Of a DNA stretch of 64,000 nt, positions 1-61,238 are shown piece after piece. The notes under the pieces were generated by a model. It was given only the letters and a program-made list of their open reading frames with translations, was not told the origin of the DNA and did no database searches. The translations under genes and the position numbers were made by a program. This stretch comes from a bacterium (lineage in GTDB: Bacteria; Cyanobacteriota; Vampirovibrionia; Gastranaerophilales; Gastranaerophilaceae), in assembly GCA_017629215.1 (NCBI GenBank), contig JAGBXP010000006.1, forward strand, positions 1-64,000, given 5' to 3'. How positions within the stretch are numbered: the first letter of the stretch is position 1; every line of letters starts with the position of its first letter.

Positions 1-127
1 GATATGATGTGAGGTGAGGAGTCTCTTTGCGTTAAAGTTTTCCAAAAAAATGCCGTATACTAAACATGTAAAGAGTAGTAGCTGGAATAAGTTTTTCGGC
101 ACAAGCAAAGAAAGGAAAACAATACGT
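1..127 (+). repeat. Promoter/leader cassette, copy 1 (left end cut)
   Basis: The sequence from base 1 to the start codon at 128 is nearly identical to 33010-33132, and its first ~60 bases also match 59790-59854. It carries the end of a pentanucleotide array (TGATG, TGAGG, TGAGG at 5-19), a sigma-28-like promoter, and a conserved ~60-base untranslated leader with an AAAGGAAA ribosome site near 111-118. The conserved block upstream of the array in the other copies lies outside the window here. Confidence 0.85.
33..59 (+). promoter_or_regulatory. Sigma-28 (FliA)-type promoter
   Basis: TAAAGTTT at 33-40, exactly 11 bases, then GCCGTATA at 52-59. The known sigma-28 consensus is TAAAGTTT-N11-GCCGATAA, so the -35 is perfect and the -10 differs at two positions. 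Transcription would start near 66 and read the gene at 128. Two other copies of the cassette keep the same spacing, which argues against chance. Confidence 0.75.
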
Positions 128-17324: not shown

Positions 17325-19412
17325 TTAGTAACCTGCTGATTCTCCAATTGTATCAACGGCTTCAACTTTAATATCTGTAATAAGCTCAGAATATGAAATT
17401 ACTACAATTGTCGGTATATGACGTTCAAGAAGTTGATAAAGAGGTAGTCTAATTCTTGGAGAGCATAATATTACAGGCTGTGTCCCTATTGTTTGATGAG
17501 CTCTCATCAAGGTCATCGCTGTAGATTCGATTAAGTCTTGAACTTGCATTGGATTTAACAAGAACATTGTACCCAATTCAGTTCTTTGACAACTATCATC
17601 AAGAGTTTTTTCCCATTCTGGAGAAAGAGTCAATGCGTAAAGAACTTTATCTCTATCAACATTTGTTAAACATATTTGACGACCAAGCGCTGCTCTAAGT
17701 CTTTCTGATAGGATATCAGGTTCCTTTGAAAATCTTGCATAATCACAAAGTCGTTCAAATACAAAAATAATATCCTTTATTGAAACCTTTTCTCTGATAA
17801 GATTTACAAAGATTTTTCTTAAATCTGATGTTGAAATAATTGCAGGTACGAGGTCGTTGACCAATGTAGGGTCTTGAGAACGCACAAGTTCCATAAGTTT
17901 AAGAACATCGGTTTTTGTCATTACTTCATCAACGTGTTTTCTTACACATTCTTGTAAATGAGTAACAAGAACGTCAGTAGCATCAACTGCTGTAACATTT
18001 TTAGTGGCTTTTGCATCTTCTTCATTTATCCAATATGCTTGGGTTTGATATGTTGGATCAACACCAATAATTGCATCTTCTGGAATGGTCTTTTTCACAG
18101 AATCCCACTGATCTGCAATTACCATGTATTTGTTTGGATAAACAAAGCCAGAAGCGACAACATTATTACGAATTGATATAACGTACTCATTAGCTTCTAA
18201 GGCAGATGAATCCATGATGCGAATATTTGGCAAAATATATCCCAATTCATCAGTAACTCTTTGACGAAGAGCTGCAATTTTAGCAAGTAATTGACCTTCC
18301 TGATCTGGGTCTGCTATAACAAGAAGTCCTGCTCCAACTTGAAGGCTTAATACGTCAACGCCAAGTCTTTCGTACATTTTATTAGGGTTAACTAAATCTT
18401 GCATATTTTGACGCACGCTTTCTAATTGACCTAATTGAGATTGTACGTCTGCGTTAACTAATACAGAGAAGCCTGCTATTGCAAGGATTATTGTGAATAT
18501 CAAAAATGGTAAGAATGGTAGACCTGTGATTGGACAAGTAACAGTTATTAGTCCTAAGAATAATGCTGCAAAAAATAGTGAATAAGGCTTTGCCATTATT
18601 TGGTTTGTTAAATCACCACCCAATGATGTATTACCAGCAGAAGCACGAGTCATGACAATACCTGCTGCGATTGACATTAGTAAAGATGGTAGCTGTGAAG
18701 CAAGACCATCACCGATGGTTAAGACAGTATATTTACTAACAGCATCTCCTATCGGCATTTTGTCAACTAAACAACCAATTGTTAAACCACCAATAATATT
18801 AATTATAACGATGATGATACCAGCCATAGTATCACCTTTTACAAACTTCATAGAACCGTCCATTGAACCGAATAAACTTGATTCTCTTTGTAGGTCTTCA
18901 CGTTTCTGAACAGCTTCTTCTGGAGAGATTAAGCCTGCGTTAAAATCGGCATCAATAGTCATTTGTTTACCAGGCATAGCGTCTAATGCAAAACGAGCTG
19001 CAACTTCTGCAATACGCTCTGCACCTTTCGTAATTACCATAAATTGTACAACGGTAATAATTAAGAATATTACACCACCAACAATCATGTTTCCACCTGT
19101 TACAAATGTCCCAAATGCGTGGATAACTTCTCCAGCATCTCCCTTTGCTAGGATCAAACGTGTTGATGCAATTGAAAGAACCAGTCGGAACATTGTACCT
19201 ATAAGGATAATTGATGGAAATGCAGCTAATTCAAGAGGTTTTTGTACATATAGGGATATCATCAAAAGAACAATACCCAAGGTGATATTTAAACTTATTG
19301 AAAAATTGATAACCCAATTAGGCATCTCCATAATAAGAATCAAAACTAATGTCATTACGAATAATGCCAAAAATATTTCCGATATAGGTTTGTTTTGCCC
19401 TTCTGCTGCCAT
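17325..19412 (-). CDS. flhA: Flagellar export gate protein FlhA
   Basis: 695 residues, normal length. The N-terminal half has about eight membrane helices and the FHIPEP-family signature RFALDAMPGKQMTIDADFNA (about 147-166). The C-terminal half is the cytosolic substrate-docking domain (EVMTKTDVLKLMELVR is a typical segment). FlhA forms the nonameric export gate. It could in principle be the injectisome paralogue SctV, but FliE, full-length FliF and hook genes nearby make it flagellar. It follows fliH with no gap. Confidence 0.95.
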   Translation of the reverse strand: MAAEGQNKPISEIFLALFVMTLVLILIMEMPNWVINFSISLNITLGIVLLMISLYVQKPLELAAFPSIILIGTMFRLVLSIASTRLILAKGDAGEVIHAFGTFVTGGNMIVGGVIFLIITVVQFMVITKGAERIAEVAARFALDAMPGKQMTIDADFNAGLISPEEAVQKREDLQRESSLFGSMDGSMKFVKGDTMAGIIIVIINIIGGLTIGCLVDKMPIGDAVSKYTVLTIGDGLASQLPSLLMSIAAGIVMTRASAGNTSLGGDLTNQIMAKPYSLFFAALFLGLITVTCPITGLPFLPFLIFTIILAIAGFSVLVNADVQSQLGQLESVRQNMQDLVNPNKMYERLGVDVLSLQVGAGLLVIADPDQEGQLLAKIAALRQRVTDELGYILPNIRIMDSSALEANEYVISIRNNVVASGFVYPNKYMVIADQWDSVKKTIPEDAIIGVDPTYQTQAYWINEEDAKATKNVTAVDATDVLVTHLQECVRKHVDEVMTKTDVLKLMELVRSQDPTLVNDLVPAIISTSDLRKIFVNLIREKVSIKDIIFVFERLCDYARFSKEPDILSERLRAALGRQICLTNVDRDKVLYALTLSPEWEKTLDDSCQRTELGTMFLLNPMQVQDLIESTAMTLMRAHQTIGTQPVILCSPRIRLPLYQLLERHIPTIVVISYSELITDIKVEAVDTIGESAGY

Positions 19413-20186
19413 CTATATATTACCTTTTAATGCTTGTTTGATGATTTCTATTTGTGTATTAACCGAAGCGTCTACAATACCATTATTGGTTTGTAATATA
19501 CACCCACCATCTTCAATTGATGGGTCAGATATAATATTTATTTTGGTATCTATGCCATATTGATATGTTATGTTTGGAATTGTATCTTTAATAAATTGAA
19601 CAGCTTGTGGTTTTACTCTTATTGTAATTTTTTGTTCACTTTTAGATACGGTTTTAAGAATGTCAATTATTGTATTAATAATAGCTTGTGGATCAGAATC
19701 AAGCTCTTTTTTTACTATGGTTTTTGCAATATTAACACTTATTTCTAAAATATCAGGAGCAATATATTCAAAGACTTCTTTTGTCGCATTCATAAAGTTG
19801 GACATTTCAGCTCTAAATTTTTCAATATCGGAATTAGCTTTTTCTAGTCCCAAACGATAACCTTCTTCAAATGCTGATTTTTTAATATTTTCTGATTCTT
19901 CTTGGGCTCTTGAAATAAGATTTCTATCATCAATTCTACGATATCCTCTTCTTCGAGATCCTCTTCGTTTTTCTTGTCTTTGAGTAAAATCAATGTTTTC
20001 TATGTCAAATAAATCTATTTCTTGAGGTTTAACTTCTGTTTCAATTTGAGTTTCTTCAATTTTATTTTTTGGAACTTCAATTTCAACCTCTTCTTTAAGG
20101 CTGGTAGTAATTTCTTCCTGAATAGGAAGCTCTTTTATTGGCTTATTATTTATTTTATTTTTTTGATTATTTTTTTTTATAATCAT
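19413..20186 (-). CDS. fliH: Flagellar assembly protein FliH
   Basis: 257 residues. The first ~100 are acidic and low in complexity with a basic patch (RQEKRRGSRRRGYRR); then FEEGYRLGLEKANSDIEKFR, the glycine-repeat helix region of FliH, and a C-terminal domain (EISVNIAKTIVKKELDSDPQ, LKTVSKSEQKITIRV, CILQTNNGIVDASVNTQIE) matching FliH/SctL/V-ATPase E. It tethers and inhibits the export ATPase FliI. fliI, which normally follows, is not in this window. Stop and flhA start adjoin. Confidence 0.85.
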   Translation of the reverse strand: MIIKKNNQKNKINNKPIKELPIQEEITTSLKEEVEIEVPKNKIEETQIETEVKPQEIDLFDIENIDFTQRQEKRRGSRRRGYRRIDDRNLISRAQEESENIKKSAFEEGYRLGLEKANSDIEKFRAEMSNFMNATKEVFEYIAPDILEISVNIAKTIVKKELDSDPQAIINTIIDILKTVSKSEQKITIRVKPQAVQFIKDTIPNITYQYGIDTKINIISDPSIEDGGCILQTNNGIVDASVNTQIEIIKQALKGNI

Positions 20187-20193
20187 TTTTATT

Positions 20194-21249
20194 CTATACG
20201 CTTTCTTCTAAATACTGTACAACTATGCCAGCAACTTTAAGTGGTAGATTACCATATTCGCCATCATTAGCTTGAGAGACAAATCTTTTAACAAATGGTC
20301 GCTCTCTTTTGAGTGCTTTTTCAACTTTTTCTCTAGATGCTGTTTTATAAAGTCTCATTATATCCGTAACAACATTTTCTTTTGTAAGCTTTTTCTTTAT
20401 TGGTAGAAAATCTTTCATTTCTTTAAGGCAATCTGTTAACAAATCGCTATCAATTTGAGATTCTAAATTCGCCATATTCATATATTGTGAAATTTTAAGC
20501 GAATCGTTTGAATTAAATTTGTTTAATATTGTGGTAACTTTATCTTGTGAAAGTATTTTAAGTACAAGTGCTAAGGTCATTAACCTCATTTGTTTGTTGG
20601 TAATACAGTTATTAGCTATTGTATTTTGGGCAATTTCTTTTTCTTTTTCTCTTTTTTGTTTATTTTTTCTTTCTTCTCTTTGTTTTCTAGCCTCTGCGGC
20701 ATTTCTTTCAGACTCCTCTGCTAATTCTTGTTGTTTTTTCATTTGTTCAGCTTGAGCCTGTTGTGCCATTGAGTCAATATTAGATTGACTTTCTGCTTTG
20801 TTTTTTGTTTCAGAGTCAATAATACCCTTTTTTTCTAATTCTTCAATAGACTCTTTGTAAACTTTTATAACGTGATGTTCTACAGCTTGTAATAATTGAT
20901 CTTGTGGGATTTTACGTATAACAGCTTGTTTTGCGATTTCAAAGATTGTAAACGCTATTTTTTGCATAATACTATCCCAGTATTGAGGAAGTATGCCTGA
21001 ATGAATAAGGTCTATTGATTTATGAAATGACCATTCAGCAATAATTTGTGTGATAAGAACAGCTTGTTCGGCATTAAGGTTTAAAGAAGTATCATTATAT
21101 AACGCTTCTCCTGCAAGATGTGTAAAATTCCCTAAAGTTTTTACAATATATTCTTTTTCATTATCATTCAATTCGGCAGGTACTAATTCTTTAGCTTGCT
21201 CTGCCATTGAAGTCGCAAATTCTTTATAATCAAAACCTTCTATTGCCAT
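20194..21249 (-). CDS. Probable divergent FliG-like switch protein
   Basis: 351 residues. It sits exactly where fliG belongs (between fliF and fliH). The N-terminal ~120 residues are helical and unfamiliar; a charged coiled coil (about 155-205) follows. The C-terminal ~150 residues (QMRLMTLALVLKILSQDKVT, SLKISQYMNMANLE, REKVEKALKRERPFVKRFVS) show the alternating helix pattern of FliG domains, including an LxxLxxxxxxxxL-type start resembling FliG's ILLLSLGEDVAA repeats. The well-known charged torque helix is not clear. Calling it FliG rests mostly on position, so I leave the symbol empty. Confidence 0.5.
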   Translation of the reverse strand: MAIEGFDYKEFATSMAEQAKELVPAELNDNEKEYIVKTLGNFTHLAGEALYNDTSLNLNAEQAVLITQIIAEWSFHKSIDLIHSGILPQYWDSIMQKIAFTIFEIAKQAVIRKIPQDQLLQAVEHHVIKVYKESIEELEKKGIIDSETKNKAESQSNIDSMAQQAQAEQMKKQQELAEESERNAAEARKQREERKNKQKREKEKEIAQNTIANNCITNKQMRLMTLALVLKILSQDKVTTILNKFNSNDSLKISQYMNMANLESQIDSDLLTDCLKEMKDFLPIKKKLTKENVVTDIMRLYKTASREKVEKALKRERPFVKRFVSQANDGEYGNLPLKVAGIVVQYLEESV

Positions 21250-21441
21250 TAAAAATTTCCCCAGTCTGAGATATAGTTAACCCAATCTTATTATATATTT
21301 AAAAATGTGTTATATCCTCATATATATTAATGATTTTAATGCAAAAAACTATATTTTTTTAACAAAAGTTTACAAATTCAAGTTGATAGACTGGAAAAAG
21401 TTAGGTCTGTAAATTGGTTTGTATTTTAATTTTAAATTTAT

Positions 21442-23106
21442 TTAGCTTTCAATCCAGCTTCTAATTCTTTCACCAGCTTCGGATTCATCAACACCATCAA
21501 ATTCTCTTTTAAGTTCTTTAAGAGCATTTTTGATATCAGAACCAGAAGCTTTGATACTAGGTCTATTTTGTTGTTCTAATAAGCCTTGCTGTAGCTGAGA
21601 TTGTTTTGCAATCATATCTGCTGCATTTGCACTTAAATCTTTTATTTGTCTTTCTTGAATTTCATTTTGTTCTCTTAGTCTGATAAGCTCTTCTTCTTGT
21701 GCAGCTCTTGCAGAATTGATTTTTTGAGTTAGAGCTTTTTGTCCAAAGAATAGACCAAATGCAAGGAGTGCAATAGCTAACCACCAAGGATTGCCGTGTT
21801 CTGCTTTTATTGGCGCTTTTACATTTTTATCTCCAGCCATGAAAGGATCTAATGATTCAGCAAAAGCTATTGTAACATTATCAGGATTAGCTTTAGGACT
21901 AGCTGCGTGAGCTATAAGCTCTTTTAATTCTTCTAAAGATAAATCTAGTGGTAAAGCATCTTTTTCAAGAGTAACTGCAATAGAGATTTCTTCAAGCACC
22001 CCTGGTGATATAAATTCATTTGTTTGAATTTTTGTTACGCCAAATTGAGTTTCTTTAGCAGTTCTTGAATAACTTCTATTTTGGCTTGAATCAGAACTGC
22101 CAGCAGGAAGTCCGTTAGGAAGATAAACACTTACTGCGTTAGTGTTTTTATTTACATCTTGAGTTTGATCTCCTAGACCTTCAGAGAAGGTTTGTTCGTT
22201 TACGGATGTCTTTCTATTTGGATCGTATTCTATAGTGAATTTTTCTACAGGAGCTTGTTTTAAGAATGTTGAAACTGTAGCTACATATTTTCCAGAGCCA
22301 ACTAACCTATTTAATTGAGCTTGGACTTTTTCTTGCATATATTTATCTTGTTGCTGTATTCTTTCAATCATTTCTGATTGAGCATCAATTAAGCTACTAT
22401 ATACATGTCCATTTGTGTCTGTTATTGAAATGTTTTGAGCTGTTAAACCTGATACACTACCTATTAAAAGGTTTGATACAGCTTTTATTGTTCCCATATT
22501 TAAGGTTTGACCAATAGCTACTGTAAGTTGAACTGTTGCAGTAATCGGTTTTTGCATTGATGTAAACATTGATTGCTCTGGTATAGAAATAAATACAGAA
22601 GCGTTTTCAATTCCATCAATTCTTTTTATTAAACGAGCTAATTCGCCGTTCATAGCTCTTACTAAGCGAATTCTTTTATCTTCTTTAGTTGATGTAAAAT
22701 CGCCTTTATCAAAAACTTCAAGACCTACGTTTTGGTCGTATAAGCCACTTTCAACGATTAACATAATTGCCATATCTCGTTTTTCTGTTGTACATTTTCC
22801 AGGAGTTGTTGTACAACTTTTTGGTTCGAGTCTTAAAACTGATTTAGTACCGTCTACAGCTCTTGTTGCAACAATACCATGTTTTGCGAGTAATGCTTGT
22901 ATTTCTAAAGCTTTGCCAAGATTATCAGTAGTTAATAAATCAACAGGATTTCTTAAAGGGATATTTGAAACTTCGATTTGTTCGTTGCCAGGTTTCTTTG
23001 TTGCTGAGATTGTTGAACAAACAATAGATACAACAAGCAATAAAACTATGCCTCCAACAATTGAAGCTAATAATATTTTGTTTTCTAATAATTGTTTTAT
23101 ATCCAT
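21442..23106 (-). CDS. fliF: Flagellar M-ring protein FliF
   Basis: 554 residues. First membrane helix LASIVGGIVLLLVVSIVC (about 13-30), two ring-building YscJ/FliF domains (LGKALEIQALLAKHGIVATR; GIENASVFISIPEQSMF), a long periplasmic region, second membrane helix PWWLAIALLAFGLFFGQ (about 438-454), and a C-terminal cytosolic tail ending FDGVDESEAGERIRSWI, the FliG-binding segment. The normal C-tail implies a FliG partner exists. A pair of Cys (CTTTPGKC, about 98-105) in the ring domain is unusual. Confidence 0.95.
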   Translation of the reverse strand: MDIKQLLENKILLASIVGGIVLLLVVSIVCSTISATKKPGNEQIEVSNIPLRNPVDLLTTDNLGKALEIQALLAKHGIVATRAVDGTKSVLRLEPKSCTTTPGKCTTEKRDMAIMLIVESGLYDQNVGLEVFDKGDFTSTKEDKRIRLVRAMNGELARLIKRIDGIENASVFISIPEQSMFTSMQKPITATVQLTVAIGQTLNMGTIKAVSNLLIGSVSGLTAQNISITDTNGHVYSSLIDAQSEMIERIQQQDKYMQEKVQAQLNRLVGSGKYVATVSTFLKQAPVEKFTIEYDPNRKTSVNEQTFSEGLGDQTQDVNKNTNAVSVYLPNGLPAGSSDSSQNRSYSRTAKETQFGVTKIQTNEFISPGVLEEISIAVTLEKDALPLDLSLEELKELIAHAASPKANPDNVTIAFAESLDPFMAGDKNVKAPIKAEHGNPWWLAIALLAFGLFFGQKALTQKINSARAAQEEELIRLREQNEIQERQIKDLSANAADMIAKQSQLQQGLLEQQNRPSIKASGSDIKNALKELKREFDGVDESEAGERIRSWIES

Positions 23107-23154
23107 AAATCCTTCCCTACATTATTATACACATATTAGGCAATTATGAGAAGT

Positions 23155-23496
23155 CTAAATCTGTAATTGCATGATTTTATCATACGCTTGTATGACTTTT
23201 CCTGTAACAGTAGTTGTTATGTTAACTGCTAATTCTGCTTTTGACATAGCTGTCATAACATCGTGTATATCGACATTTTGATTACCCATCATAGCGTCTT
23301 TTAATAAGTTATCAGGAGCTTCCATTGTAGTATTTAAGTTTTCTACTAATCCAGACATTACCGATGAAAAATCAGCAGTACCGATTTCTTCAACTCTATT
23401 CATTCGAGCTGAAGGCATATTGTAACCCCAGGAATCCAGTTTAGTATGTTGTATTCTTGCTTCTAATTCGTATCTTGGATAAAAACCTTTAAACAT
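23155..23496 (-). CDS. fliE: Flagellar hook-basal body protein FliE
   Basis: 113 residues. The C-terminal half matches FliE: FSSVMSGLVENLNTTMEAPD, then VHDVMTAMSKAELAVNITTT-type text and the ending VIQAYDKIMQLQI, where FliE normally ends AYxEIMxMQI. The N-terminal ~40 residues are longer than usual. FliE joins the MS ring to the rod. It is the first gene of fliE-fliF-X-fliH-flhA, with a sigma-28-like promoter upstream. Confidence 0.92.
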   Translation of the reverse strand: MFKGFYPRYELEARIQHTKLDSWGYNMPSARMNRVEEIGTADFSSVMSGLVENLNTTMEAPDNLLKDAMMGNQNVDIHDVMTAMSKAELAVNITTTVTGKVIQAYDKIMQLQI

Positions 23497-23517: not shown

Positions 23518-23544
23518 TTATCGGATAATTTGTTATAAATTTTA
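23518..23544 (-). promoter_or_regulatory. Sigma-28-like promoter of the fliE operon
   Basis: On the minus strand TAAAATTT (23544-23537), exactly 11 bases, TCCGATAA (23525-23518). This differs from the sigma-28 consensus at two of 16 positions. The start would be about 10-15 bases before the fliE ATG, with AAGAGG in between. Confidence 0.5.
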
Positions 23545-33038: not shown

Positions 33039-33065
33039 TAAAGTTTTCCAAAAAAATGCCGTATA
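33039..33065 (+). promoter_or_regulatory. Sigma-28 (FliA)-type promoter
   Basis: TAAAGTTT (33039-33046), 11 bases, GCCGTATA (33058-33065). Same match and spacing as copy 1. It reads the small gene at 33133 through a ~60-base leader. Confidence 0.75.
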
Positions 33066-36509: not shown

Positions 36510-38159
36510 ATGAGAATTTGTCCGATTAATCAAGCTAATGTGCATGTCGCAACTAAGCAGACTAAACAGAACAATAAAGGTCATTTAAGTTTTAAAGCAT
36601 TGCCAAGGCATTATGATAAATCCTTGCTTATTATATTAGATGGGTTTGGAATAAAATCAGGAGGAAATTTTAATCCTTTTCTAAAATCAAGAATGCCTTT
36701 TTTTCATACTTTGCAATTAAACTCTTGGGGAGATACTTTATATAGAACAATACAAGCGTCAGGAATACATGTTGGATTGCCAAAAGGATTAGCTGGTAGC
36801 TCTGAGGTTGGGCATAATAATTTAGGTGCAGGAAGGTTAATTCCACAAGATTTAATGGCAATAGATAATTCTATAGATGATGGTACTTTTTTTAAGAATA
36901 AAGAGTTTTTAAATGCAATAAATCATGCAAAAAATAAAGGATCTACATTACATTTAATGACATTATTAAGTGATGGATATGTACATTCTTCAACAAGGCA
37001 TTTGCATGAACTTATTAAAATGGCAAAAGCAAATGAAGTGCAAAATCTTAAAGTACACGCATTTTTAGATGGTAGAGATGTTCCAGAAGGCTCTTCAAAA
37101 GACTATATAAATGCTACAAATAAAATTTTAAGCGAAAACGGCTATGATAATATTGCTTCTTTAATTGGGATGAAATATCCAATGGATAGAGCAAGAGATT
37201 GGGGAAAAACAGAAAAAGCTTATAATTTGTTAGTTAATGGAAAATCCGATTATTCTGTAGAAAAATTTGAAAATCTATGGGAAAAACTACACGAGGAAGA
37301 AAAAATAAAAGAAAAAGATTTTCCTGCAATAATATTAGATAAATTTGCACCAATAAAAAATAGCGACTCTGTAATTTTTACAAATTACAGAAATGATAGG
37401 ACTAGACAGCTAGCAGATGTATTAACACAAGCTACTAGCACAGCTCCGTTTCTTGAAAATGCAGATCGACTACAAGATTTATATTTTGTTTGTATGACTG
37501 AGTATGATCCTTCATTCCATCTCCCAGTTGCGTTTCCTGTACAAATACATTCTAATACACTCACTCAGGTGCTGAATGACCAAAATTGTAGACCTTTTAT
37601 TGCTGCAGAAACAGAAAAACAAGCGCACATGACCTTCTTTTTAGATGGAAAAAAACATATACGTTATTCAAATACAAGTTATTTCTTCCCTGCATCCGAT
37701 CACGAAGCTTTAACTCCAGAGATGCAAGGAAAAACTATTAAGGATTTGATTTCACTTTGGATGAATAATAAAAAATCAAAGGCTATGTTAGTAAATTTTG
37801 CTAACGCTGATATGATTGGACATGAACAAGATTTCAAAAAAGGCATAAAAACCTTAGATTACATAGATAATATTCTTCAAAATATTGTTGAGTCTGCAAG
37901 AAAAAGAAATATCGCAACTATTATAACTGCTGATCATGGAAATATTGAAGACTTCTCTCATGGTGGACATACAAGTAATCCTGTGCCTTTCGTAGCAGTA
38001 TTGCCAAAATGTGAAAAACATATTGAATCAAATCATCTGTTTTTAGATGATGATCCAGAGGCAGCGATTAGCAGAGTTGCACCAAGTTTTATTGACACAA
38101 TACGAGATATTAAAAAACCTAATATTATGTATGATAGCTTATTTAAGATGAAAAAATAA
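36510..38159 (+). CDS. gpmI: 2,3-bisphosphoglycerate-independent phosphoglycerate mutase with N-terminal tag
   Basis: 549 residues. Metal and catalytic motifs are intact: LLIILDGFGIKSGG, LAGSSEVGHNNLGAGR (phosphoserine), FLDGRDVPEGSS, NFANADMIGHEQDF, ITADHGNIEDFSHGGHTSNP. It interconverts 3- and 2-phosphoglycerate. About 35 extra residues (MRICPINQANVHV to LSFKALP) precede the normal start and carry an LSFKA motif shared with other proteins in this window. The next gene follows by 9 bases. Confidence 0.93.
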   Translation: MRICPINQANVHVATKQTKQNNKGHLSFKALPRHYDKSLLIILDGFGIKSGGNFNPFLKSRMPFFHTLQLNSWGDTLYRTIQASGIHVGLPKGLAGSSEVGHNNLGAGRLIPQDLMAIDNSIDDGTFFKNKEFLNAINHAKNKGSTLHLMTLLSDGYVHSSTRHLHELIKMAKANEVQNLKVHAFLDGRDVPEGSSKDYINATNKILSENGYDNIASLIGMKYPMDRARDWGKTEKAYNLLVNGKSDYSVEKFENLWEKLHEEEKIKEKDFPAIILDKFAPIKNSDSVIFTNYRNDRTRQLADVLTQATSTAPFLENADRLQDLYFVCMTEYDPSFHLPVAFPVQIHSNTLTQVLNDQNCRPFIAAETEKQAHMTFFLDGKKHIRYSNTSYFFPASDHEALTPEMQGKTIKDLISLWMNNKKSKAMLVNFANADMIGHEQDFKKGIKTLDYIDNILQNIVESARKRNIATIITADHGNIEDFSHGGHTSNPVPFVAVLPKCEKHIESNHLFLDDDPEAAISRVAPSFIDTIRDIKKPNIMYDSLFKMKK

Positions 38160-54653: not shown

Positions 54654-55847
54654 ATGTTGAAGGTGAACAACATACAAGGTTTAAACGGTAGATTTGTAAA
54701 ACAGCGTTTAAGTAATGACAGTAATACTGAAAATAGAACGAATTTATCTTTCACCAGTAATGTGGTTGAGAGTAATGAAAATGCTATAAAAGAAAAAGAT
54801 AAAGAGAAGAAAAGTAAGTTAAGTTTTAAAAAAATAACAAATGTTCTTGGGACATTAGCTGGTGTAGGGATTATTTCTTATGCTGGTTTTTCAATGGGGT
54901 TACGTCCTAAATGGATGAAAAACTTAACGAATAAAAACAAAAAATTAGAAACTAAATTAAAAGCGCAAATAGAAAAATTAAAGGTTAAAGAAGGACTTAA
55001 AGCTGGTACAGAAGAAAAAGGTAATGCATGGTATAATATTGGTGCAAAAGTCCAAGGAGCAGTGGAACAAATTGGTGAGGAGCTATCAAATAACTTGCTT
55101 TATGGTATTGGTACTTGTATCATAATGCCTTTAGTTTTATTATACAGTCCTTTCGGTAAAAAAGATTCAACAAAAGAAGATAAATTCTTTGCAGTTGCAA
55201 GACAACCATTATCATTTATCACAATGTTTTCTATGCAACTTACGTTTGATAAATTATTCTCTCGTTGGTCAAAATCAATTATTGACCAAAATGTATTAGA
55301 AACTAAAAATGTTCAGGATGCTTTAAGCAAAGGTGGAGATATTGATGAGAAGATTCTTGAGCAGATAAAATATAATGACAAACCTTTAAAATCTAGTTTC
55401 AAAAACGAATATACAAAATTCATTGAAGTACTAACAGGTAATGCAAAAGATGCAGATAAAGATATTACAATGCTAGATAAAATCAAAAGTCCAAGTGAGC
55501 AAATAAATGAATTTAAGGCTATTTTAACTAAATTAGAAAATGATCCAGAATATAAGGTCAAATTTAATAAAGATACAGCAACGAAATTAGAAAAATCTTT
55601 TGAAAGATATGTTAATGTTAAAAATAATTCAAAATTAAGAACAGAGTCAATTAAAATTGTAAGTAATGTATTAGTTTCACAAATTATTGGTTGTACATTA
55701 TTGAATGTAATTTATGGAAAAGCTATGAAAGGTTGGGCAAAATATAAAGAACAAAAGAAATTAAATGAATTACAAAATAATAATATTAACAATCAAGCTA
55801 TTGAAAATATAAATTCTGAGAATAAAAATGAAGGGAAGGTGGCGTAA
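54654..55847 (+). CDS. Membrane protein with SF-type N-terminal tag, first of a pair
   Basis: 397 residues (AAAGGATG ahead). N-terminus MLKVNNIQGLNGRF then TNLSFTSNVV; membrane segments VLGTLAGVGIISYAGFSMGL (about 63-82), LLYGIGTCIIMPLVLLYSPF (about 143-162) and VLVSQIIGCTLLNVIYG (about 340-356). Long Lys-rich helical regions between. No family recognised. Its stop overlaps the next start (TAATG), so the two probably form a complex. Confidence 0.65.
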   Translation: MLKVNNIQGLNGRFVKQRLSNDSNTENRTNLSFTSNVVESNENAIKEKDKEKKSKLSFKKITNVLGTLAGVGIISYAGFSMGLRPKWMKNLTNKNKKLETKLKAQIEKLKVKEGLKAGTEEKGNAWYNIGAKVQGAVEQIGEELSNNLLYGIGTCIIMPLVLLYSPFGKKDSTKEDKFFAVARQPLSFITMFSMQLTFDKLFSRWSKSIIDQNVLETKNVQDALSKGGDIDEKILEQIKYNDKPLKSSFKNEYTKFIEVLTGNAKDADKDITMLDKIKSPSEQINEFKAILTKLENDPEYKVKFNKDTATKLEKSFERYVNVKNNSKLRTESIKIVSNVLVSQIIGCTLLNVIYGKAMKGWAKYKEQKKLNELQNNNINNQAIENINSENKNEGKVA

Positions 55848-56797
55848 TGAAAATTAATAATGTATCAAATAATTTTGCAAGACCTTCTTTCAAAGCTACT
55901 GAAAATAAAGAACCTGAAAATATGACACCTGAAGAGTTTAATAGCAAATTTGAGGAAATCAAAAAAGGTCGTAAGAACGCAGGAAAAACTTATAAAATAA
56001 ATAGAAAGAATTTGGGTGAAGATAAAGCTTTAAAAACTTATAGAGAGACTTTAGTAGGTCTACAAGAAGAACTTAGTAATCTTGTAAAAAGATTTGAGAA
56101 TTCAATAGATCCAAAAACTGGTTTAAAATACAAAAACGTAGATAAAGCACCTGAATTTATACAGACAATTTATAGAAGGTTCTCGAATTCTTGGTTAATG
56201 AAAAAGTTATCAAGTAACGGTATAAATGGGAACAAGGTCGGTGGTATTACGATAGCGTTGGCGTTAGGTAATGTTCTAAAAGAACTTATGGGTACAACAT
56301 TCTATACAATCCAGGCCATGACTAATGAGGACTTACCACCAGATAAGAGAAAATTTGTTGGTATGTATGACTTGATTGTTGGTCTTGTATCTACATCATT
56401 CTCAATAGGATTTGGTGCGTTAGCAATATTTGGTCAAGATGCTGCTATTAAATGGGCACTTAAAAATAATAAAACTCAACATCATTCAAGATATGCAACT
56501 GCTTATGCAGGTTTAACTTTCCTAATTCCAAATTTATTACAAACAATTATTGGTAAGAGAATTGTTGCACCTGCAATAGGTACTCCAGCTGCAGGTAGAT
56601 GGAAAGAAAAACAATTAGCAAAACTTGAAGCTGAAAAAGCAAAAAATAATAATGATGTGCAGAATAAACAAGCTGAATCGAATACTGTAACCGATTTGAA
56701 ATTTACAGATAAAGGTTATATAGATCTTGAGGCTGTGGTTGAAGATGAAAAGCTTGCAAAAAAGAACACTAATGAAAAATCTTTAGCAACAGTATAA
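55847..56797 (+). CDS. Membrane protein with SF-type N-terminal tag, second of a pair
   Basis: 316 residues. MKINNVSNNFARPSFKATEN at the start is the clearest SFKA tag in the window. Membrane segments GITIALALGNVLKELMGTTF (about 140-160), LIVGLVSTSFSIGFGALAIF (about 183-202) and AGLTFLIPNLLQTIIG (about 225-240). C-terminal tail acidic and Asn-rich. No family recognised. Confidence 0.65.
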   Translation: MKINNVSNNFARPSFKATENKEPENMTPEEFNSKFEEIKKGRKNAGKTYKINRKNLGEDKALKTYRETLVGLQEELSNLVKRFENSIDPKTGLKYKNVDKAPEFIQTIYRRFSNSWLMKKLSSNGINGNKVGGITIALALGNVLKELMGTTFYTIQAMTNEDLPPDKRKFVGMYDLIVGLVSTSFSIGFGALAIFGQDAAIKWALKNNKTQHHSRYATAYAGLTFLIPNLLQTIIGKRIVAPAIGTPAAGRWKEKQLAKLEAEKAKNNNDVQNKQAESNTVTDLKFTDKGYIDLEAVVEDEKLAKKNTNEKSLATV

Positions 56798-59827: not shown

Positions 59828-59854
59828 TAAAGTTTTTAAAAAATATGCCGATAA
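59828..59854 (+). promoter_or_regulatory. Perfect sigma-28 (FliA) consensus promoter
   Basis: TAAAGTTT (59828-59835), exactly 11 bases, GCCGATAA (59847-59854). All 16 consensus positions match. It reads the gene at 59930. Confidence 0.85.
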
Positions 59855-59929
59855 TAATTCTACAAGTAGATCTAAGTTAGCATGCAACGTAAGTCGTATT
59901 ATGTAGTAAAAAATAGAAAGGAGTACAAA

Positions 59930-61096
59930 ATGGTAGATCAAATTAATAATGCAGGTCCAAAAGTATCAAAATTTCTTAACAACGAAATTAAAGGCATAAT
60001 GAGTATGGAAGGAAAAAAGAATAAAATAGATACAGAAAAAGAATATAATAAGATTGGAGAACTTCTAGCTAAAGGTGATTATAGTGCTACAGAAAAAGAA
60101 TTTTTAGAAGGCTATAGACTTGAATATGAAAACGCACAAAAAGCTAAAGAGGCTAAGGATTTTGAAGATAAAATGACACCTGGTGTAAAAAAGGATGTTG
60201 ATAAATTGGTAAAAGAAATGAATAAAAAAAATAATTTAACTCCAGATTTACAAGCTCAAAAACTAACAATAATGCTAAATGATTCGAAAAACAAGTTAAA
60301 TTCAGCTGATGAACAATATATTAGAGAAGCTTTGATTAATAATGGTTATGGAAATTTAATATCTCAAAATAAAGGTATGGATGCTACTAAAGAAAAGATT
60401 GACGCTTCTAATAATAGTTCTTACAATACTGAAGCAACTGATATAAAAAATGTAGAAGCGCCAAAACTAGATGAAGTTACAGAATCGACAGGTACAGAAA
60501 AGCATAACGCTGATGAAGCATTCTCTCCAAAAACAGAAGCTTCTGAATCTTCTTCCAATGGGGCAATATCTAATGGGGTTGATACAAATACTCCCGCAAA
60601 ACGAACTCAAAATACAAAAGTTAGTATCTCTATAAAAGATAATGGGGCTGGAATAGCATTAGGCGACGACTTCGCGAAAGCAACTATTGATAAAAAAGAT
60701 CCAAAATTAATTAGAACAGTTTGTCAATCTATCACTAAAGATAACGCATATAGTTTTTTTAAATATTTAGATAAGTATCTTAGGTATGATGGAGATTTAG
60801 ATGGCAGAACAGAGTTTGTATTTACAACACGCATATTTAGTGTTAATGATCCAGGTAAATTAGTCAACACTAATCAAGCATTTAAAGCTATAAATAATTT
60901 AGTAGCTCAAGCAAAAGAAATGAAACTAAATAATACTAAAGCTTATAAGGAGCTTGCAACTCTAAATCGTGCTCTATATAACCAGGTTAATTCATCACCA
61001 GGTATGATAGGAGATTTAAGTATTGATCTACAAGTATCTGTTGATAAAGCAATTGAGGCTATGATAAAAGAAATGGATAAACATGTAATACAATAA
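59930..61096 (+). CDS. Low-complexity protein under sigma-28 promoter, function unknown
   Basis: 388 residues from the ATG at 59930 (AAAGGAG ahead); an upstream frame to 59882 lies in the leader. The N-terminal ~150 residues are helical and Lys-rich; about 155-225 is Ser/Thr/Asn/Glu-rich and probably disordered; then KVSISIKDNGAGIALGDDFA and a helical C-terminal domain (about 250-388). No signal peptide, no membrane helix, no Cys except one near 263. Such a layout is common in type III-exported proteins, and the promoter fits late flagellar control. Function is unknown. Confidence 0.72.
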   Translation: MVDQINNAGPKVSKFLNNEIKGIMSMEGKKNKIDTEKEYNKIGELLAKGDYSATEKEFLEGYRLEYENAQKAKEAKDFEDKMTPGVKKDVDKLVKEMNKKNNLTPDLQAQKLTIMLNDSKNKLNSADEQYIREALINNGYGNLISQNKGMDATKEKIDASNNSSYNTEATDIKNVEAPKLDEVTESTGTEKHNADEAFSPKTEASESSSNGAISNGVDTNTPAKRTQNTKVSISIKDNGAGIALGDDFAKATIDKKDPKLIRTVCQSITKDNAYSFFKYLDKYLRYDGDLDGRTEFVFTTRIFSVNDPGKLVNTNQAFKAINNLVAQAKEMKLNNTKAYKELATLNRALYNQVNSSPGMIGDLSIDLQVSVDKAIEAMIKEMDKHVIQ

Positions 61097-61112
61097 TTAT
61101 TTTAAAGATAAC

Positions 61113-61148
61113 TTCAGAAGGGTATTCAAAATAGAGTACCCTTTTGAA
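61113..61148 (+). terminator. Terminator after the sigma-28-driven gene
   Basis: TTCAGAAGGGTA, loop, TACCCTTTTGAA: 12-bp stem with one G-T pair and a T-run inside the second arm. Confidence 0.75.
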
Positions 61149-61238
61149 TTATTAGAGCATAATTGGCGAAACTTTTTTATTCTTTTGTGATATAATTAAT
61201 TAAAATATAATTATTTAGCATAGAGGAGTATTGAGAGA

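What the first reader, a model, noticed from the sequence alone, without database searches (positions are those of the whole stretch)
59930..61096. 388-residue disordered-middle protein under a perfect FliA promoter
No known domain, no signal peptide, a Ser/Thr/Glu-rich central region, and late-flagellar promoter control. This fits a protein exported by the flagellar machinery or a flagellum-associated factor.
Basis: inference. Interest (0 to 1): 0.5.

Follow-up and report, generated by a model that had tools for sequence, protein, structure and literature searches.

The report
FliA-controlled modular putative secreted protein
A probable rumen bacterium related to cyanobacteria appears to switch on this two-domain protein with its late flagellar genes; it belongs to an unnamed, mix-and-match family that is probably shipped out of the cell by flagellum-type export machinery, which has not been tested in the laboratory.

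Summary
Window 59930-61096 (+) is a 388-codon gene with a ribosome site, an exact sigma-28 (FliA) box 102 bases upstream, a terminator-like hairpin, no signal peptide and a disordered middle (residues 147-228). The host is a Candidatus Gastranaerophilales, probably from rumen, with FliA, flagellins and two flagellum-type export systems. The protein is one of a shuffled two-module family, found only in its own genus among 17 genera examined, without Pfam or PDB sequence relatives. Of 26 module genes, 16 carry a FliA box (at least 13 of 16 positions), against 3 of 142 other genes. The N-module always begins the protein and is joined to different C-terminal parts, once to a calpain-like region. 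FliA boxes in the genus precede flagellins, FliD, many leaderless proteins, an export ATPase and, in weaker form, the operon of the second export system. Best reading: a late substrate of type III export, comparable with the Fed proteins of Campylobacter. Export is inferred. Against strict FliA control: 10 of 26 module genes, among them one clade of three, lack a near box. New variant of a known kind.

The parts
59828..59854 (+). FliA (sigma-28) promoter box TAAAGTTT-N11-GCCGATAA, exact
59917..59923 (+). ribosome-binding site (AAAGGAG) before the ATG
59930..61096 (+). 388-codon gene of the two-module family
59957..60364 (+). N-module (about residues 10-145), two similar helical halves; shared with proteins whose C-terminal parts differ
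60368..60613 (+). disordered linker, residues 147-228, rich in S, T, N, A and E
60605..61093 (+). C-module (about residues 226-388), helical, with a poorly predicted stretch at about 281-310; also found in other proteins
61100..61160 (+). strong terminator-like hairpin (-23.3 kcal/mol, z -7.7); the consensus scan listed no terminator here
17325..23496 (-). operon of the second flagellum-type export system: FliE- and FliG-like (by eye), FliF-, FliH- and FlhA-like genes
23518..23544 (-). FliA-like box (14 of 16) before that operon; its -10 element is conserved in the genus

Best explanation
The gene is transcribed, probably alone, by RNA polymerase carrying FliA, at the late stage when flagellins are made. 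Its product is a leaderless protein of two small helical domains joined by a disordered linker. It belongs to a family that shuffles its domains and has so far been found in one genus of Gastranaerophilales. Most likely the conserved N-terminal module and the unfolded stretches make it a substrate of type III export, through the flagellum or through the second flagellum-type apparatus, and the protein acts outside the cell on other cells or surfaces. Shown by computation: the promoter, the regulon, family membership, modularity and lack of a signal peptide. Inferred: binding by FliA, export, route, target and activity.
For: FliA over the TIGR02479 cut-off in 51 of 57 genomes, own 222.1 bits against 189.6; flagellin in 55 of 57. 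Box of up to 1 mismatch: own genome 16, reversed control 0. Boxes precede flagellins of two relatives (15 of 16) and a FliD (by eye; 16 of 16). Module genes with a box of at least 13 of 16 within 350 bases: 16 of 26; other ORFs 3 of 142; at 15 or more, 14 of 26 against 0 of 142. The N-module begins within the first 30 residues of the open frame in all 22 distinct genes that match it (25 frames, 3 of them second copies of one gene), before different C-terminal parts. First genes behind boxes: 0 of 55 have a hydrophobic N-terminus, window ORFs 6 of 38 (Fisher 0.004). Second export system: two FliP, two FliI/SctN ATPases over cut-off, one downstream of a 15-of-16 box with a small ORF between. CCGATA within 130 bases of the FliE-like start in 18 of 19 genus loci, 0 of 11 loci of other genera, 6 of 160 ORFs in general. 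Precedent: C. jejuni Fed proteins, which depend on sigma-28 for production and secretion, and FspA from a sigma-28 promoter (passages of PMC5223770 and PMC9856085).
Against: No secretion data exist. 10 of 26 module genes lack a box of 13 or more within 350 bases; of these L062 has a full box at -413 and L068 is second in a tandem pair behind a box. The clade L066, L067, L069 (support 97/93) has none close to its genes and shares another upstream element. The full protein is found in only 10 of 34 genomes of the genus, one or other module in 18 of 34, so it is accessory. 14 of the 76 boxes examined have no gene with a ribosome site within 420 bases, among them an exact one. Two genes further down from boxes (L077 at +348, L095 at +416) do begin with signal-peptide-like stretches. 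Of two flagellins examined in the own genome, one has 14 of 16 and the other only 11. FliA regulons also hold cytosolic proteins (general knowledge).
Confidence: 0.55

Rival explanations
1. It is a cytosolic protein co-expressed with flagella, for example a regulator, chaperone or scaffold of motility or of the second export system; the modules bind partners inside the cell.
For: Helical domains and a linker suit a scaffold; the C-module models resemble four-helix bundles, among them CheA phosphotransferase domains, at Z of about 6 to 6.6, which is not above background for helical models.
Against: The family is accessory (full protein in 10 of 34 genus genomes; a module in 18 of 34) and its N-module is joined to varied C-terminal parts, one of them calpain-like; a conserved motility part should be in all flagellated members. 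No match over cut-off to any chaperone or chemotaxis family.
Confidence: 0.25
2. It is a structural or surface protein of the flagellum or of the second apparatus (junction, cap, sheath or tip).
For: Its promoter is of the kind found before filament and cap genes.
Against: Found in only 10 of 34 genomes of a genus in which flagellin was found in all 34; no flagellin, hook or cap family match.
Confidence: 0.12
3. The box is a remnant or coincidence and the gene is controlled otherwise.
For: One clade of the family lacks a near box and shares another conserved upstream element; some boxes have no gene behind them.
Against: 16 of 26 against 3 of 142; the box is exact although the window protein shares at most 28% identity with its nearest relative over 334 columns.
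Confidence: 0.05

Closest known systems
Campylobacter jejuni Fed proteins and FspA (sigma-28-dependent, flagellum-linked non-flagellar proteins)
   Same: Sigma-28 promoter, made together with flagellin, not flagellar parts; ours likewise seems accessory and lacks a signal peptide
   Different: No sequence comparison with Fed or FspA was run; here the family is modular, lies in a cyanobacterium-related lineage, the set of boxed genes is large and includes part of a second export system; secretion is unproven
Late (class III) flagellar genes under FliA
   Same: Exact promoter architecture; shares the box with flagellin and FliD genes of relatives
   Different: Not a conserved flagellar component
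Non-flagellar type III secretion systems and their effectors
   Same: A second flagellum-type export gate, ATPase and ring operon exists; leaderless modular candidate cargo, some with enzyme-like regions
   Different: The second FlhA-like protein falls under the curated cut-offs of both FlhA and SctV; needle, secretin and translocators were not sought

Membership tests
FliA (sigma-28) late promoter | TAAAG(TTT)-N11-GCCGATAA with correct spacing (consensus recalled) | tested here: met
   0 mismatches at 59828-59854
FliA (sigma-28) late promoter | Cognate FliA sigma factor and flagellin in the genome | tested here: met
FliA (sigma-28) late promoter | Transcription start and FliA dependence | not testable with these tools
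   needs RNA mapping
Fed-type flagellum-secreted proteins | Sigma-28 promoter | tested here: met
Fed-type flagellum-secreted proteins | No Sec signal peptide | tested here: met
   hydrophobicity screen only
Fed-type flagellum-secreted proteins | Secretion that needs the flagellar export gate | not testable with these tools
   needs a culture or a heterologous assay
Fed-type flagellum-secreted proteins | Sequence homology to FedA-D | not tested
   no Fed sequence was fetched
Second export system as flagellar FlhA (TIGR01398) | Score over the curated cut-off | tested here: not met
   692.6 bits against 772.1
Second export system as injectisome SctV (TIGR01399) | Score over the curated cut-off | tested here: not met
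   585.3 bits against 692.25
EF-hand protein | Pfam match to an EF-hand model | tested here: not met
   no EF-hand among the families at E up to 0.1, 11 members scanned
Annexin | Pfam match to the annexin repeat | tested here: not met
   none at E up to 0.1, 11 members scanned
Annexin | Annexin fold | tested here: inconclusive
   annexin rows at Z about 5-6 over about 70-82 residues among unrelated helical proteins

The most novel reading that the evidence does not exclude
In this genus FliA has been recruited as the switch for a second, flagellum-derived secretion apparatus and its cargo. The 388-residue protein and its relatives are modular effectors whose N-module is a common export or targeting tag placed in front of interchangeable payloads, used by non-pathogenic rumen bacteria against other rumen microbes or protozoa.
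Probability: 0.3. Interest if true: 0.78.

Novelty: new variant of a known kind. Interest (0 to 1): 0.5.

Why it matters
Flagellum-dependent secretion of non-flagellar proteins is known mainly from a few pathogens. If right, this is an uncultured, cyanobacterium-related gut lineage that uses its flagellar sigma factor to run a large set of leaderless proteins together with part of a second export machine. The FliA box then becomes a simple sequence handle for listing that candidate secretome, and the N-module a testable export tag.

Tried and rejected
Pfam, NCBIfam and PDB sequence searches of the protein or family gave no match over a cut-off; a few weak Pfam rows for single relatives (best E 2.5e-4, a low-complexity repeat model) were not followed. 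Foldseek against the PDB gave no match at E up to 0.001 for either model; VIA-align gave Z of at most 7.0 and 7.8, mostly helical proteins, so no fold is named and a new fold is not claimed.

An EF-hand-like reading of the repeated 'KKxIDTxxE' motif and an annexin-like reading of the C-module were considered from eye and not supported by Pfam. A resemblance, seen by eye, of an 825-residue regulon protein (L089) to the C-module was dropped because the profile search did not report it. Viral contigs gave 0 confirmed relatives. No conserved gene neighbourhood: none of five neighbouring window proteins has a tblastn match at 1e-10 in L061-L070. Boxes without a convincing gene behind them (14 of 76, for example L079 and the exact box in L084) were not used as regulon members.

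Literature: searches for this order or class with type III secretion, effectors or flagella showed in their listed rows nothing on a FliA regulon or a second export system in this group; several listings were capped (for example 12 of 975), and of the papers only passages of PMC5877343, PMC4040986 and PMC3787301 were seen. Searches on FliA with effectors or injectisomes elsewhere list papers on links between flagellar and virulence-type secretion in Salmonella, Yersinia and others, so such links as a kind are not new. This is an absence in this library, not proof.

Full report
What is there. The ORF 59930-61096 (+) starts at an ATG with the ribosome site AAAGGAG and codes for 388 residues. The exact FliA box lies at 59828-59854. 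A strong hairpin follows the stop codon (the consensus scan listed no terminator), and the next gene, fabH-like by eye, starts about 140 bases further on, so the gene is probably transcribed alone. The window belongs to contig C49 of a 1.8-Mb draft genome, 97.6% complete. Of the ten named loci that hold relatives, five are labelled Candidatus Gastranaerophilales; several bear RUG or Rumen names (RUG as rumen is recalled), hence 'probably rumen'; the label 'Acinetobacter' on two others is a submitter's and does not fit.

Is the box more than chance? Allowing 1 mismatch, the own genome has 16 copies and none of the reversed pattern; 55 of 57 genomes have copies, 5 to 36 per genome in the own genus and 0 to 12 elsewhere. 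FliA passes its curated cut-off in 51 of 57 (own: yes) and flagellin occurs in 55 of 57. I read the genes behind 76 boxes: all 16 of the own genome, 18 of 19 in G018, 35 of 36 in G013 and 7 of 13 in G033. In 55 of 76 the first gene with a ribosome site and at least 50 codons starts within 200 bases; 14 have no such gene within 420 bases (overlapping duplicates removed by hand). Flagellins in G018 and G013 have boxes of 15 of 16 and a FliD (by eye) in G013 one of 16 of 16, so the motif is the late flagellar promoter. In the own genome one of two flagellins examined has 14 of 16 and the other only 11. Most of the other 55 first genes code for proteins I could not name; 28 of the 55 have 50-160 residues and 13 have 500 or more. 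Some of the large ones look EF-hand-like at the start by eye. L110 and L130 resemble each other (blastp about 3e-15), and L130 has a weak Pfam calpain match (E 4.6e-4, under its cut-off). None of the 55 first proteins has a hydrophobic N-terminus, against 6 of 38 window ORFs (Fisher 0.004); two genes further downstream of boxes, in L077 and L095, do.

The family. A search of 57 genomes with the protein finds it in 10, all of the own genus (34 genomes), at 26-37% identity for the others; the named collection gives 10 loci. The alignments show an N-module of about 135 residues made of two similar halves (each with a 'KKxIDTxxE' motif and a following helix pair), a linker without conservation, and a C-module of about 150 residues. 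AlphaFold2 gives mean pLDDT of about 80 for the N-module and 72-95 for most of the C-module (38-54 at residues 281-310), with the linker below 50; a model of the central relative L061 agrees. Neither has a convincing fold match.

Modularity. Profiles of the two modules find them apart as well (the E-values are for a small set of loci and the profile was iterated on it). One or other module is in 18 of 34 genus genomes and in none of 23 others. The C-module alone occurs in short genes of L062, L063 and L153 and near the end of open frames of over 600 residues (L154-L159). The N-module occurs in 22 distinct genes, always within the first 30 residues of the open frame, before different C-terminal parts (L168-L173, L175, L176). 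In L176 that part is homologous to L130 (phmmer E about 5e-8 in a three-sequence set), though L176 itself has no Pfam match. An element fixed at the N-terminus and shared by otherwise different proteins is what an export or targeting tag looks like; that is inference.

Link of family and promoter. I counted 26 distinct module genes with their upstream sequence at hand: 22 with the N-module, one borderline (second gene of L169, E 1.8e-4, kept; it has no box) and three with the C-module only; copies of one gene were counted once, and six long C-module frames were dropped because their upstream was not fetched. 16 of 26 have a box of at least 13 of 16 within 350 bases and 14 of 26 of at least 15. 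Of 142 non-module ORFs (100 codons or more with a ribosome-site pattern, 17 sources) 3 reach 13, one of which is the second-system operon, and none reaches 15. Of the 12 two-module genes, 7 have it. Exceptions: L068 is second in a tandem pair behind a box, L062 has a full box at -413, and the clade L066, L067, L069 has none near its genes (a 14 of 16 at -572 in L069 and a 15 of 16 at -686 of the first L067 gene are far off) but shares a palindrome-like element AATGTAAC...GTTACATT.

Two export systems. For the own genome one search counts three FHIPEP matches, two of them listed as full-length; there are two FliP, two FliI/SctN ATPases over cut-off and two FliE-like matches, the second weak. 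The set on contig C1 (FliP and FlhA with neighbours read by eye) I take as flagellar, by its higher Pfam score (859 against 716 bits) and context. The other FlhA-like protein lies in this window (17325-19412) with FliE-like (by eye), FliF-like and FliH-like genes and scores under the curated cut-offs of both FlhA and SctV. Before this operon the -10 element CCGATA stands within 130 bases of the start in 18 of 19 genus loci and in 0 of 11 loci from other genera of the order; ORFs in general, module genes included, have it in 6 of 160. The -35 half is weaker (11 of 19 with TAAA at the right spacing), and 14 of the 34 genus genomes were not in that search, so FliA control of the operon is likely but not certain. 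One of the two ATPases lies behind a small ORF with a 15-of-16 box.

Mechanism. Shown by computation: FliA-type promoter, late-flagellar regulon, leaderless modular family, two export systems. Inferred: the protein is made when the flagellar gate, or the second gate, is ready for late substrates; the N-module with its flexible start is recognised; the protein leaves the cell and acts there. The known parallel is the group of sigma-28-dependent Fed proteins of Campylobacter jejuni and FspA (passages of PMC5223770, and PMC9856085). Published work on this order reports flagella in some members (PMC3787301, PMC4040986, PMC5877343; passages only). My searches listed nothing on a second export system or FliA regulon there (listings capped).

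Verdict. The interest lies less in the single protein than in the regulon it reveals.

Noticed in passing
window 17325-23496 (-): Operon of a second flagellum-type export system (FliE-, FliF-, FliH-, FlhA-like), with relatives across the order; its FlhA-like protein is under the cut-offs of both flagellar FlhA and injectisome SctV.
   Followed up: partly
L066, L067 and L069, about 50-150 bases before the family genes: Three family members that lack a near FliA box share a palindrome-like upstream element, AATGTAAC...GTTACATT, suggesting a switch of regulator.
   Followed up: partly
L089, L091, L110, L115, L116, L127, L130, L131, L139 (regulon loci): Large leaderless proteins behind FliA boxes in relatives, some with EF-hand-like starts by eye or calpain-like regions; a candidate secretome.
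   Followed up: partly
window 36510-38159, 54654-55847, 55847-56797; L178 4882-9621: Several proteins, among them a phosphoglycerate mutase-like enzyme (by eye), begin with an extra N-terminal stretch ending in a short motif such as SFKA, SFTS or QFKG; a possible shared tag.
   Followed up: no
window 33-59 and 33039-33065: The same 27-base sequence TAAAGTTTTCCAAAAAAATGCCGTATA occurs twice, 33 kb apart; a repeat or duplicated promoter region.
   Followed up: no
boxes listed: By eye, the genus box often has a T- and A-rich spacer (TTTT..AAAAA) and often ends GATAT, beyond the usual FliA consensus.
   Followed up: no
L084 (G000 C49:69621-69647, -): An exact FliA box just outside the window, in an intergenic stretch, with no convincing gene behind it; possibly a small RNA or antisense transcript.
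   Followed up: no
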